NCBI GenBank assembly: GCA_017404665.1
Contig: JAFRBX010000074.1
Location: 1-55,430 of the forward strand
DNA from: Ruminococcus sp.
GTDB taxonomy: Bacteria; Bacillota; Clostridia; Oscillospirales; Acutalibacteraceae
Direction of reading: 5' to 3'
DNA: 55,430 bases
A program made the position numbers and the translations under genes. The notes below the pieces were generated by a model. That model had not been told where the DNA came from. It saw only the letters and a program-made list of their open reading frames with translations, and ran no database searches. Positions 30,658 through 33,377 of this stretch are shown piece by piece. Numbering within the stretch: the first letter of the stretch is position 1; every line of letters begins with the position of its first letter.

Positions 30658-30783
30658 GTTCACTTTTTAGATCATCGCGTTCTCTTTTTCTATAGGCGCG
30701 TTCACTTTTCAGACTCTTACGTTCGTTTTTTAACTCTCTGTGTTCACGAGCGCCGGGGTTGCGTTCATTTTTGAGAAAACGGT
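30658..30783 (+). repeat. Six 21-bp tandem repeats upstream of ncRNA 1
   Basis: GTTC recurs at 30658, 30679, 30700, 30721, 30742 and 30763, exactly every 21 bp. Best units read GTTCACTTTTTAGA or GTTCACTTTTCAGACTC. A 21-bp step is two helical turns, and the array ends at the -35 box of the next promoter. Confidence 0.7.
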
Positions 30784-30811
30784 TACAAAAACACGATGGA
30801 TATGTTACGAT
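30783..30811 (+). promoter_or_regulatory. Promoter of structured RNA 1
   Basis: TTACAA (30783-30788) and TACGAT (30806-30811) are 17 bp apart. The RNA would start at the G of GCCAACAA, seven bases after the -10 box, as in copy 2. Confidence 0.6.
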
Positions 30812-30817
30812 AAGGAA

Positions 30818-31008
30818 GCCAACAAATTCACATTTGAATAATTAGCTTTTATAGCATTTTTATGGGATATTGTTATTATTTCCCGATAAAAACTATGCTC
30901 TTTTCTTGCTATCCCTTATTTGCTATAAAAGCGTGGTAGTGTGAATATGTTTGGCGACAGTTTGAGCGAAGTGTTTTTTGATGCGCGGCTCAGGCTGTGT
31001 GTTGTTTT
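30818..31008 (+). ncRNA. Structured RNA gene, copy 1 (unidentified, 6S-like shape)
   Basis: A long rod folds: a closing stem (30819-30832 with 30940-30954), then a bubble with TGAATAAT, a 12-bp stem GCTTTTATAGCA/TGCTATAAAAGC, a GGGATA/TATCCC stem and an apical hairpin ending in CCCGATAAAAAC and ATGCTC. After the closing stem come GTTTGGCGACA and GTGTTTTTTG, conserved with copy 2, then a weak terminator near 30981-31008 and a stronger one at 31071-31096. Lower stems differ from copy 2 but remain paired, while the apical part is nearly identical. Size and closed-rod shape recall 6S RNA, but the conserved apical part is not typical, so the family is open. Confidence 0.65.
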
Positions 31009-31017
31009 ATTATAAAT

Positions 31018-31060
31018 AGTCATTGCGAAGCCCGCTGGGGCTGTGGCAATCTCAACCGAA
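31018..31060. repeat. TCATTGCGA-family palindromic repeat
   Basis: Short copy between the two structured RNA genes, arms TCATTGCGAAGCCC and GGGGCTGTGGCAATCTC. Confidence 0.75.
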
Positions 31061-31070
31061 AAAACAGTAG

Positions 31071-31096
31071 AGCGCTTCCTCGTGGAGGCGCTTTTC
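31071..31096 (+). terminator. Hairpin terminator between the two RNA genes
   Basis: AGCGCTTCC pairs with GGAGGCGCT (one wobble), followed by TTTT. It may be the final stop for RNA 1. Confidence 0.6.
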
Positions 31097-31140
31097 GCAT
31101 ACTTGTACATTCTGCATAAAATAAGCGTAAATATTTTGGA

Positions 31141-31169
31141 TTGCGGTGCGCGCCGCAATATGGTAGAAT
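31141..31169 (+). promoter_or_regulatory. Promoter of structured RNA 2
   Basis: TTGCGG (31141-31146) and TAGAAT (31164-31169) are 17 bp apart. A GC palindrome (TTGCGG...CCGCAA) lies in the spacer region. Confidence 0.6.
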
Positions 31170-31175
31170 TAAAGT

Positions 31176-31387
31176 GCCAACAATTTACAAATGAATAATG
31201 CTGTTCTTAAGAATAATTAGACTTATTCATGGGGATAGTGTTTTTATTTCACGATAAAAACACTATGCTCTATTTCAACTATCCCTACAAGTCTAATTGT
31301 TCAAGGATTATTTGTAAATTGTTTGGCGACAATCGTAGGGCAACGTGTTTTTTGGCGCATGACCTTGCGGTTGTGCGCCTTTTTTTT
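31176..31387 (+). ncRNA. Structured RNA gene, copy 2 (unidentified, 6S-like shape)
   Basis: The closing stem is CAATTTACAAA/TTTGTAAATTG. A large bubble follows (TGAATAATGCTGTTC on the 5' side, GTTCAAGGA on the 3' side), then AATTAGACTT/AAGTCTAATT, GGGATAG/CTATCCC and an apical hairpin GTGTTTTTAT/ATAAAAACAC with a TTCACG loop. GTTTGGCGACA and GTGTTTTTTG follow as in copy 1, and the RNA ends with a clear terminator (31354-31387). Promoter, covarying stems and terminator make a gene very likely. It ends 133 bp before the CHAP-dockerin gene. Confidence 0.7.
31354..31387 (+). terminator. Terminator of structured RNA 2
   Basis: GGCGCA (31354-31359) pairs with TGTGCGCC (31372-31379), followed by eight T's. 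Confidence 0.9.
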
Positions 31388-31402: not shown

Positions 31403-31491
31403 AAGCCTCCCTTTCCTAAGGGAGGTGCCCGACAGGGCGGAGGGTTGCTATCGTCATAGCGAGGGCAAAGCCTGTGGCAATCCCGCAAAGA
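31403..31491. repeat. Two palindromic repeats before the CHAP-dockerin gene
   Basis: A CTCCCTTTCC/AAGGGAGG element (31403-31447) is joined to a diverged TCATAGCGAG...TGGCAATCCC element (31456-31491). Confidence 0.6.
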
Positions 31492-31520
31492 GTCAATACA
31501 TTTTTAAGGAGGTCATCTTT

Positions 31521-33377
31521 ATGTTGAGGAAAATCTTGTCGTTCCTACTAGCTGTTACTATGTTGTTCAGTGTTTTTATCACCCTGCCTTTCACCGCCTC
31601 GGCAGGTGAAACGGAGCTTTCTGAGGAAAGCGCTAAATTGGATATAGTCGCAACAGGTAATCCATATTCGGGCGGGTATGCTAACTGTACATGGACAGCG
31701 TGGCAGAAAGCATATGATGAAGCAGGAGTTAGCTTACCCGGATGGGGCAATGCGTGGACGTGGTATTCTTCGGCACAAGCCGCCGGTTACGCAACAGGCT
31801 CCGCTCCCCGAGCAAAATCGATTGCAGTTTATAATTATACTTCAACAAATTCGTACGGTCACGTTGCATATGTAAGCGACTATAACAGCTCAACGAATCA
31901 GATATACAAAAAAGAAGGCGGTTATCTTGGCGGGTATCATGAAGGCTGGGGACCGGCATACGAGAGTAATATGTTAGGGTATATTTATCTTGATGGTAAT
32001 CCTATTCCTCAAGGTCATGTTATGTCCGAGTCCGAGGCGGCAGGCAGAACGATTCCCGACGGCACCTACTGGATATGCAGTAAGATAGCGCAGGATTATT
32101 TTTGGGATATTCCCGCCGAAAACCGAGATACCTTCAACGGATGCAATTTACAGACTTGGATATGGAAAAATAAACCCGTCCCGAATGAATACGATGCGTT
32201 CTATGTTCAATATATTGACAACGGTTTTTATATCATTCTGCAAAAGGGTACTCAAATGGCGGTCGATGTTACCGGCGGTTCTCTCAACCAAGGGACTAAT
32301 GTGCAGATGTGGGAAGTGAATTACTCTAATGCACAGCAGTGGTCGATTGAGAGAACAGACAGCGGCTATAAGCTGCGTTCAAGATGCAACAATTACTACG
32401 CAGACGTATACAACTGTAACTACGCGGGAGAGACCAATGTCCAGACATGGGGAGGCAACGACACAAACGCGCAGCGATTCTCTTTTATCCCATACTATCC
32501 CGATGAAAGACCGATTGCGGACGGCGTTTATTCGATCGGCTCGATCGTAGGCGACACCTGTTATCTGGACGCTTTGGGTGTTCTCGGCAGTTATGTGGAC
32601 AAAACCAATGTGCAGATATGGAACGGCTCTGAAGATTTGTTTAAGATCGAGTATGACACAGACGGATACTACAGGATATATGAGGTTACGAGCGGGCTGG
32701 CGGTAGAAGTGACAAATGACGATAAATCGTATCTGGATAACAGCAGAAATGTGGCGTTGGGCACAAAGAGCGGCAGCAGAGGGCAGTTCTGGAAAATCAG
32801 GAAGAATTCCGACGGAATCTATTCGTTCATCAACAAGCAGTCCGGCTATTATCTCGACGTCAACGGAGGCGGAAGCGCTGACGGTACCAACGTAAAGCTT
32901 TATCCGTACAACGGCTCCGATGCGCAGAAATGGAGGATAAAGAAAGAGCTGCAAAGCAATATGGTGAAGGTCGTGGGCTGGTCGTTGAAAAACGGCTTTT
33001 ATCAGCCGAGCGTTGAGGTAAGCTATAACGGTCAGCTGTTGATAAAAGACAAGGATTATTCGGTGAGCACCTATATCGATAATGAAACGCTGTATGCGAA
33101 GATCACCGGAACGGGTGATTTCAGCGGGTCGGTTTCAGTGGAGTACAGCGATCAGCCTGTCCTCGGCGACGCGGACGGTGACGGGGCGGTGACCTCGGTC
33201 GATGTTACGCTGATTCAGCGCGTGTGCGCTAATCTCAGCGTCGGCATCGACGAAGATGTGCTGATGAACGCCGACGTCGACGGAAACGGCGTATTGGAGA
33301 TCATTGACGCGACGTGGATACAGCGGCATTTGGCGCAGATGAATGTGCCGTATGCGATCGGGAAAGCAAAAGGATAA
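31521..33377 (+). CDS. Secreted CHAP amidase/peptidase with ricin lectin repeats and C-terminal dockerin, 618 aa
   Basis: ATG 31521 follows AAGGAGG; the longer frame upstream is repeat sequence. A signal peptide ends near ASA (about residue 29). A CHAP domain follows (about 45-155), with the cysteine in ANCTWTAWQ and the histidine in SYGHVAYVSDY as catalytic pair. Two ricin-type beta-trefoil regions (about 170-480) carry several Q-x-W motifs. A short beta module comes next, then a type I dockerin (about 550-615): GDADGDGAVTSVDVTLIQR and NADVDGNGVLEIIDATWIQR are its two calcium loops. It would cut peptidoglycan or peptides while bound to sugars and to a cohesin scaffold. CHAP plus dockerin suggests cellulosome-like attachment of a wall hydrolase. 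Confidence 0.92.
   Translation: MLRKILSFLLAVTMLFSVFITLPFTASAGETELSEESAKLDIVATGNPYSGGYANCTWTAWQKAYDEAGVSLPGWGNAWTWYSSAQAAGYATGSAPRAKSIAVYNYTSTNSYGHVAYVSDYNSSTNQIYKKEGGYLGGYHEGWGPAYESNMLGYIYLDGNPIPQGHVMSESEAAGRTIPDGTYWICSKIAQDYFWDIPAENRDTFNGCNLQTWIWKNKPVPNEYDAFYVQYIDNGFYIILQKGTQMAVDVTGGSLNQGTNVQMWEVNYSNAQQWSIERTDSGYKLRSRCNNYYADVYNCNYAGETNVQTWGGNDTNAQRFSFIPYYPDERPIADGVYSIGSIVGDTCYLDALGVLGSYVDKTNVQIWNGSEDLFKIEYDTDGYYRIYEVTSGLAVEVTNDDKSYLDNSRNVALGTKSGSRGQFWKIRKNSDGIYSFINKQSGYYLDVNGGGSADGTNVKLYPYNGSDAQKWRIKKELQSNMVKVVGWSLKNGFYQPSVEVSYNGQLLIKDKDYSVSTYIDNETLYAKITGTGDFSGSVSVEYSDQPVLGDADGDGAVTSVDVTLIQRVCANLSVGIDEDVLMNADVDGNGVLEIIDATWIQRHLAQMNVPYAIGKAKG

What the first reader, a model, noticed from the sequence alone, without database searches (positions are those of the whole stretch)
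30783..31387. Two tandem paralogous structured RNA genes of unknown family
Both have a 17-bp-spaced promoter, start at GCCAACAA seven bases after the -10 box, fold into a long rod, share GTTTGGCGACA and GTGTTTTTTG after the closing stem, and end at hairpin terminators. Lower stems differ in sequence but pair in both copies; the apical region (GATAAAAAC, ATGCTC, CTATCCC) is conserved. Size and rod shape recall 6S RNA, but a conserved tip suggests another bound partner.
Basis: partly seen in the sequence, partly recalled or inferred. Interest (0 to 1): 0.8.

Follow-up and report, generated by a model that had tools for sequence, protein, structure and literature searches.

The report
Orphan RNA switch before secreted-protein genes
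Two neighbouring copies of an RNA switch, matching no catalogued family, sit in front of a gene for a secreted protein; relatives occur in many Clostridia and appear to decide, by refolding, whether the gene behind them is transcribed, but what they sense is unknown.

Summary
In detail: two paralogous RNAs (30818-31012, 31176-31387) have matching promoters, rods, 3' motifs and terminators. They are not 6S RNA, and no Rfam 15 family matches at gathering score. They belong to a large multicopy family: a covariance model finds it in 99 of 295 genomes of the order, 92 of 391 of the class, and 1 of 398 across the phylum (the window's own). In 108 model-found members rod and terminator pairs covary strongly (508 two-sided changes; shuffles 129). 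Most members are mRNA leaders: a start codon usually follows the terminator within 100 nt, often of a secreted protein. The linker between rod and terminator can pair with the conserved tip (pseudoknot, 94.5% of cells) or, using the same bases, with the terminator's 5' arm (antiterminator, 92.5%). Best reading: a transcription-attenuation switch, riboswitch-like, trigger unknown. Weak points: no expression data; antiterminator covariation is weaker than the rod's; in the window's own nearly invariant subtype the pseudoknot test is empty; a small-molecule ligand is only inferred; c-di-GMP is unlikely. Supplementary motif catalogues could not be opened, so the family may be listed there unnamed.

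The parts
30783..30811 (+). Promoter of copy 1: -35 TTACAA, 17 bp, extended -10 (TG at 30803-30804, TACGAT 30806-30811); predicted +1 = 30818
   Evidence: Read; same spacing conserved in relatives
30818..31012 (+). Copy 1 of the leader RNA (rod, tip, 3' linker, terminator)
   Evidence: Fold z -6.5; model hit 30818-31007, 61.8 bits, E 8.9e-12
30888..30900 (+). Tip strand X of copy 1: AAAAAC ... GCTC
   Evidence: Sequence; pairing to linker -8.2 kcal/mol
30956..30979 (+). Switching linker Y2 of copy 1: GAGC plus GTGTTTTTT; can pair with X or with the terminator 5' arm
   Evidence: the antiterminator hairpin is in the minimum-energy fold
30979..31008 (+). Terminator hairpin of copy 1 and the start of its interrupted U-tract
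   Evidence: -12.2 kcal/mol against -15.7 for the antiterminator
31141..31169 (+). Promoter of copy 2: TTGCGG, 17 bp, extended -10 TAGAAT; predicted +1 = 31176
   Evidence: conserved spacing in relatives
31176..31387 (+). Copy 2 of the leader RNA
   Evidence: Fold z -9.2; model hit 31211-31383, 64.0 bits, E 2.6e-12
31238..31245 (+). Y1 of copy 2 (GTGTTTTT), first partner of X in the apical hairpin P3
31256..31270 (+). Tip strand X of copy 2: AAAAACAC TAT GCTC
   Evidence: Pairs with linker, -12.8 kcal/mol
31328..31353 (+). Switching linker Y2 of copy 2 (GGGC 31338-31341, GTGTTTTTT 31345-31353)
   Evidence: minimum-energy fold has a longer antiterminator-like hairpin that also takes the foot of the rod
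31354..31387 (+). Terminator of copy 2 with U8 tract
   Evidence: -18.3 kcal/mol against -15.5 for the antiterminator
31508..31520 (+). Ribosome-binding site AAGGAGG (31508-31514) and spacer of the downstream gene
31521..33377 (+). Presumed regulated gene: 618 aa, N-terminal signal peptide by eye, CHAP, ricin-B-like lectin and dockerin domains
   Evidence: Inside an ORF (start chosen by the RBS); Pfam

Best explanation
Each copy is a promoter plus a cis-acting attenuator leader. Transcription starts at the first base of the rod (inferred from promoter spacing). Four helices form a domino switch. OFF: tip strand X pairs with the linker Y2 (pseudoknot), leaving the terminator arm free, so RNA polymerase stops. 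ON: X stays in the apical hairpin with Y1, Y2 pairs with the terminator 5' arm (antiterminator), and the gene, often one for a secreted or surface protein, is transcribed. Supported by comparative evidence: rod, terminator, pseudoknot and antiterminator pairings, their use of the same bases, and leader position. Inferred: actual termination, which state the signal favours, and that the signal is a small molecule sensed by the rod and tip. The two tandem copies would give two decision points or a second promoter before the same gene.
For: Leader position: of 108 pattern-side records, 74 have an SD-preceded start under 100 nt after the terminator and 92 under 300, median 35 over all with an ORF; of the 108 model-found members 91 under 300 nt (median of these 23), 70 under 100. 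So close a start leaves little room for another promoter (inference). Rod and terminator: 33 pairs, 97.0% of 3528 cells paired, 508 two-sided changes against 129 shuffled, 0 of 500 shuffles reach it; slid structures 33-55% paired. Pseudoknot X:Y2: 94.5% paired, slid 40-67%, 55 two-sided changes against 21.4; in 159 elements helix length 4.73 against 3.70 free and 3.91 stratified shuffles, 0 of 500 each. Antiterminator: 92.5% paired, slid 30-62%, 33 two-sided changes against 18.7; 9.75 against 8.77 and 8.82, 0 of 500 each; 8.17 against 7.00 in 103 members including both window copies, 0 of 1000. Antiterminator and terminator are nearly equal in predicted energy, means -13.9 and -14.7 kcal/mol over 159, the antiterminator stronger in 69. 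Downstream ORFs pass a crude signal-peptide test in 72 of 89, against 42 of 338 other ORFs of at least 150 aa in the same loci.
Against: No RNA-seq or termination data. In the 33 distinct members of the window's subtype (GCCAAC start) X and Y2 are almost invariant and the pseudoknot test gives no signal (3.09 against 3.20 shuffled). The pattern-found set was selected on the 3' motif, so its invariance there is partly ascertainment. For the antiterminator, the number of pairs with two-sided changes is not exceptional (86 of 500 shuffles), and a version slid by one column has more two-sided cells (42 against 33) though only 29.8% of its cells pair. A first energy-based antiterminator test was modest (11 of 1000 shuffles as good over 102 members, 8 of 1000 over 59 distinct linkers; a 3'-arm control leaned the same way, 25 of 300). 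Shuffles do not fully remove relatedness. 41 elements failed automatic parsing. In the window the gene starts 133 nt after the U-tract, farther than the median. 17 of the 108 model-found members have no SD-ORF within 300 nt (some at contig ends), and in that set only 49 of 91 ORFs pass the signal-peptide test, so the secretome theme is not universal. Each window copy has its own promoter, unlike tandem riboswitches as I recall them.
Confidence: 0.83

Rival explanations
1. Stand-alone small RNA genes: the terminated, 5'-paired RNA is the product and acts in trans (for example on RNA polymerase or mRNAs); the nearby genes are incidental or read through constitutively.
For: Own promoter at fixed spacing, terminators, 5' end buried in the rod, tandem copies in the window each with promoter and terminator, 17 of 108 members without a close downstream ORF.
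Against: Start codons mostly under 100 nt from the terminator; a covarying antiterminator has no purpose in a pure sRNA; ten strong copies in this genome, of which those examined stand before different genes.
Confidence: 0.1
2. Same attenuator, but the trigger is a protein (or another RNA) that binds the rod or tip, not a metabolite.
For: Long rod with variable stems and few conserved loop bases; the regulated genes share no obvious pathway and no ligand-linked metabolic gene stood out (not a systematic search).
Against: Spread through 99 of 295 genomes of the order, often with several copies; no linked regulator gene was noticed, but none was searched for.
Confidence: 0.3
3. 6S RNA paralogues, as the first reader suggested by shape.
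For: Rod shape and size; promoter and terminator.
Against: Separate 6S in the same genome (RF00013, 61.3 bits); no 6S match at the copies even with permissive search; leader position.
Confidence: 0.02
4. A leader-peptide attenuator: a short ORF starting at the conserved GTG before TTTTT controls termination.
For: GGAG lies just upstream; 77 of 97 members have no stop from that codon to the end of the terminator.
Against: In typical members GGAG is only 2 nt from the ATG or 4 nt from the GTG (short for a ribosome-binding site), the U-run and so the frame into the terminator vary between members, 16 of 97 stop after 5 codons, and the bases are explained by two other helices.
Confidence: 0.03
5. 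A palindromic repeat (REP/MITE-like) that spreads in intergenic DNA without function.
For: Multicopy, variable stems, one decayed copy (L024).
Against: Same-strand placement before RBS-bearing genes, conserved promoter spacing, two covarying helices sharing one strand; no blastn hit of the window stretch in phage or plasmid records.
Confidence: 0.02

Closest known systems
Transcription-attenuating riboswitches with a pseudoknot and antiterminator (general architecture; recalled)
   Same: 5' leader, conserved structured domain, linker that joins either the domain or an antiterminator, intrinsic terminator before the RBS, several unlinked genes per genome, tandem copies
   Different: No known ligand; no match to any riboswitch model of Rfam 15 at the elements tested; promoter and +1 locked to the first base pair of the rod; targets often exported proteins rather than one metabolic pathway
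6S RNA (RF00013)
   Same: Rod-like, about 190-210 nt
   Different: Own 6S elsewhere in the genome; no model match at the copies; leader context
c-di-GMP riboswitches (recalled to control surface genes in Clostridia)
   Same: Surface-protein genes downstream, attenuation
   Different: No Rfam match; GGDEF domains not found in 19 of 45 family-bearing genomes
raiA motif / ModT RNA (seen only in a search listing, PMC11706538)
   Same: Structured RNA of Clostridia
   Different: No Rfam model matched at the elements tested; that raiA is in Rfam is recalled
Candidate RNAs of human microbiomes, PMC8040213 (abstract and passages seen)
   Same: Large catalogue (3161 candidates), 508 directly upstream of genes, some with terminators
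   Different: No candidate in the passages seen resembles it; its supplementary tables could not be opened, so overlap is not excluded

Membership tests
Riboswitch (generic class) | Lies in the 5' leader of a coding gene | tested here: met
   92 of 108 records and 91 of 108 model-found members have an SD-ORF under 300 nt downstream
Riboswitch (generic class) | Conserved structured sensing domain with covariation | tested here: met
Riboswitch (generic class) | Expression platform with mutually exclusive structures | tested here: met
   (comparative evidence only; weaker for the antiterminator, controls)
Riboswitch (generic class) | Direct binding of a metabolite or ion without protein | not testable with these tools
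   Needs in-line probing or transcription assays
Any of 4227 Rfam 15 families | Match at or above gathering score at the element | tested here: not met
   Window, 0 matches; 17 member loci, 5 matches, none at the element; permissive searches of the window and 14 member loci gave only below-cut-off matches at or near elements
6S RNA RF00013 | Match to the 6S model | tested here: not met
   The only match in this genome is G000:C48:48373-48562
6S RNA RF00013 | Binds RNA polymerase holoenzyme through a central bubble (recalled) | not testable with these tools
   No binding data
c-di-GMP riboswitch | Genome able to make c-di-GMP (GGDEF) | tested here: not met
   No GGDEF match in 19 of 45 bearing genomes, present in 26
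Leader-peptide attenuator | Conserved short ORF in constant frame | tested here: not met
   Of 97: no stop before the terminator end in 77, stop after 5 codons in 16, after 7-10 codons in 4; frame shifts seen by eye

The most novel reading that the evidence does not exclude
A very common, unrecognised riboswitch class of Clostridia, up to about ten copies per genome, in which one diffusible signal sets transcription of a large part of the secreted and surface proteome through a four-strand domino switch (Y1:X + Y2:T5 against X:Y2 + T5:T3) locked to its own promoter.
Probability: 0.45. Interest if true: 0.9.

Novelty: new variant of a known kind. Interest (0 to 1): 0.77.

Why it matters
A leader family found in about a quarter of the sampled genomes of the class (92 of 391), without an Rfam 15 match, that often sits before leucine-rich-repeat, lectin, dockerin and lipoprotein genes could be a global switch for how gut bacteria present themselves to host and plant fibre. 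Finding its ligand would be a directly testable problem, because the predicted ON and OFF helices are defined base by base. The covarying expression platform also makes it a useful model: expression platforms have been hard to study by covariation (abstract of PMC13273304, seen in the listings).

Tried and rejected
6S kinship: rejected. Known Rfam families: none at gathering; the best permissive hits were far below cut-off (TarB 23.2 bits against 80). c-di-GMP as general ligand: made unlikely. uORF: not supported. Mobile or phage origin: one viral-contig pattern hit (L159), judged chance; no phage or plasmid match. A triple helix of the linker U-run with the apical A-U stem was considered and dropped, since the linker covaries in antiparallel Watson-Crick sense. 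A correlation of rod arm lengths (fold-back test) was planned and not run. RNAalifold's small hairpin of columns 151-166 in A2 was left out of the model, as four of its five pairs are G-U or A-U with the U-run. The antiterminator test was modest; my arm definition there cut the loop, and the later helix-length test uses the loop plus three bases.

Literature: listings (0 papers) showed nothing recognisable; passages of PMC8632094, PMC11109978 (passages, abstract and outline), PMC8040213 (abstract and passages) and PMC9481103 (passages) were seen; supplements were not available. So 'not in print' holds only for these searches.

One search used 97 elements: 3 without a clear terminator (window copy 1, L024, L033) and 10 without a well-paired 5' partner were dropped. 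Searches also left out L024, L033 and L076. One search gave 132 matches, of which the last 24 (weak, opposite strand of palindromic elements) were dropped. One search parsed 159 and failed 41; of the 12 failures printed, 9 are the GCCAAC subtype, which was tested apart. One search dropped repeated proteins and one ORF with a misplaced start.

Full report
Observation. Reading, copy 1 starts at 30818 and copy 2 at 31176; each has a -35 box, 17 bp, a -10 box with an upstream TG, and GCCAACAA as predicted first transcribed bases. Both fold far better than shuffles (z -6.5 and -9.2) and end in terminator-like hairpins. Rfam gives no match in the window at gathering score and only matches far below cut-off in a permissive search. 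The genome has one 6S match, on another contig.

A multicopy family. A blastn search of 39 related genomes (the window's own included) found the element repeatedly within the genus. From 42 short members I built a covariance model. It finds 10 copies in the window's genome at E 1.4e-6 or better, and matches at E 0.001 or better in 99 of 295 genomes of the order (60 of 148 genera), 92 of 391 of the class (54 of 223 genera) and 1 of 398 drawn across the phylum, that one being the window's own genome. The last number doubles as a negative control. Model E-values are rough, and in these large searches stricter filters were used and only 7-9 candidates per genome scored, so copy numbers are lower bounds and weak members are missed.

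Structure. To escape the bias of the motif pattern I fetched 100 model-found regions from 99 genomes, and took the 108 matches at E 1e-10 or better. In them the first base pairs of the rod, invariant in the window's subtype, vary with compensation: the third pair is C-G in 56, G-C in 41, U-A in 6 and A-U in 5. Over 33 pairs 97.0% of cells pair, with 508 two-sided changes against 129 in shuffles, and the structure slid by 1-3 columns pairs in 33-55% only. That alignment was fitted to the model, which favours the structure; but the 42-member alignment made by MAFFT alone agrees (95.8% paired, 141 two-sided changes against 43), and unaligned swapping of strands in 96 members does too (rod positions 10-14: 328 of 480 paired, shuffled mean 215, maximum 242; positions 1-9 are too invariant to tell, 754 against 750).

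Promoter. Counting upwards from the first rod base, an extended -10 and a -35 box sit at fixed positions: in 97 pattern-side members G(-14) 92, T(-12) 91, T(-7) 93; in the model-found set G(-14) 100 of 107 and T(-1) 102 of 107. Neither set was selected on the promoter. Transcription should therefore begin at the first rod base, leaving no single-stranded 5' end (inference).

Leader position. I looked for the next same-strand ORF with a ribosome-binding site after the terminator. Among 108 pattern-side records the median distance is 35 nt, with 74 under 100 and 92 under 300. Among 108 model-found members 91 have one under 300 nt, with a median of 23 nt. In the window the gene starts at 31521, 133 nt after copy 2's U-tract. 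Of 89 downstream ORFs, 72 pass a crude signal-peptide test, against 42 of 338 other ORFs of at least 150 aa in the same loci; in the wider model-found set 49 of 91 pass, and the rest include zinc-ribbon, helix-turn-helix, AbrB-like and adenylating-enzyme-like proteins (named by eye from sequence). Pfam tallies over 90 downstream proteins, some truncated at contig ends or at 700 aa: BspA-type leucine-rich repeats 34, dockerin 13, FNIP 12, List_Bact repeat 7, ricin-B-like lectin 7, CHAP 7.

The switch. Between rod and terminator lies a linker, GGAGC(UAU)GUGUUUUU in typical short members. Its bases can pair with the tip strand AAAAACAC...GCUC inside the rod (pseudoknot) and, alternatively, with the 5' arm and loop of the terminator (antiterminator). 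The linker GRGC and the tip four-mer are fully complementary in 101 of 104 members. In the model-found set the pseudoknot pairs are formed in 94.5% of cells (slid 40-67%), with 55 two-sided changes against 21.4 shuffled, notably linker C with tip G (69) and linker U with tip A (28) at one position. The antiterminator pairs are formed in 92.5% (slid 30-62%), with 33 two-sided changes against 18.7; but the number of pairs showing such changes is not unusual (86 of 500 shuffles), and the version slid by one column holds 42 such cells, though only 29.8% of its cells pair. Alignment-free tests agree with both: tip-linker helix 4.73 against 3.70 (free) and 3.91 (shuffled within groups sharing the first three bases), linker-terminator helix 9.75 against 8.77 and 8.82, none of 500 shuffles reaching either; 8.17 against 7.00 in 103 members including both window copies, and 7.42 against 5.96 in the 45 without a CUUCGG loop, 0 of 1000 each. 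Against this, within the window's subtype (33 distinct) tip and linker hardly vary and the pseudoknot test is empty (3.09 against 3.20), and the first energy-based antiterminator test was only modest (11 of 1000 over 102 members, 8 of 1000 over 59 distinct linkers, with a 3'-arm control at 25 of 300). At the second tip base after the A-run, tip G goes with linker C in most cases, also where the hairpin partner is U (36 of the 48 U-G cases listed), so the linker pairing is not a mere echo of the hairpin.

The four helices chain: hairpin Y1:X goes with antiterminator Y2:T5 (read-through), pseudoknot X:Y2 goes with terminator T5:T3 (stop). Predicted energies of antiterminator and terminator are close, -13.9 and -14.7 kcal/mol on average over 159 elements, the antiterminator winning in 69, as expected of a poised attenuator. 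For the window, copy 1 gives -15.7 against -12.2 and copy 2 -15.5 against -18.3; the minimum-energy folds of both copies contain the antiterminator hairpin, in copy 2 at the cost of the foot of the rod. Which state the signal stabilises is not known; because the pseudoknot belongs to the domain that would do the sensing, I lean to a signal that turns the gene off, without strong grounds.

Signal. Direct evidence is lacking. Because surface genes suggested c-di-GMP, I looked for GGDEF domains in 80 genomes of 94% completeness or more: 26 of 45 bearing genomes have them and 19 do not, against 26 of 35 genomes in which the RNA was not found. c-di-GMP is therefore unlikely to be a general ligand.

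Comparison with the known. By architecture this works like a transcriptional riboswitch or other attenuator. By membership it matched no Rfam 15 family in the loci tested. Papers searched did not show it, but the large human-microbiome catalogue of PMC8040213 may hold it unnamed in tables I could not open. I therefore rate it a new variant of a known kind: apparently a new class within cis-regulatory attenuators.

Tandem arrangement. Besides the window, eight further close tandem pairs were noticed in passing (G000:C29; six in the lists; G015:C7); this is not a systematic count. Where I saw the upstream bases of both copies (L032, L186, L235, L236) each has its own -10-like box, so tandem copies add both a promoter and a decision point.

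Noticed in passing
L024 (G000:C56:7162-7319, minus strand): A decayed relative of copy 2: 84% identical over most of the RNA but with the tip shortened and no terminator, followed by unrelated sequence.
   Followed up: partly
L161 (G000:C39:59848-59978): A family member with the GCGACAC/GTGTCGC rod base and promoter, but by eye no linker U-run or terminator behind it.
   Followed up: no
window 31019-31060 and 31450-31500; also L025 after its terminator: A short stretch of the type CATTGCGA...GTGGCAATC recurs between elements and genes in this genome; looks like a REP-like intergenic repeat (by eye).
   Followed up: no
L220, L224, L232: Three model-found elements in different genomes stand directly before similar ORFs with G(Y/F)PSIDKPWLKYY near the start, which look by eye like adenylating enzymes of a biosynthetic cluster; a possible clue to the signal.
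   Followed up: no
L235, L216: Some elements precede ORFs starting MPD, the L235 one AbrB-like by eye; regulators may themselves be under the switch.
   Followed up: no
L050, L072 (labelled Bacteroides sp. NALB_7823_8) and L065 (labelled Gastranaerophilales): Elements in metagenome-assembled genomes with non-clostridial labels; possibly mis-binned or mis-named contigs.
   Followed up: no
L083 6887-6992 and L231 1806-1918: SAM and TPP riboswitches lie in the same loci as family members.
   Followed up: no
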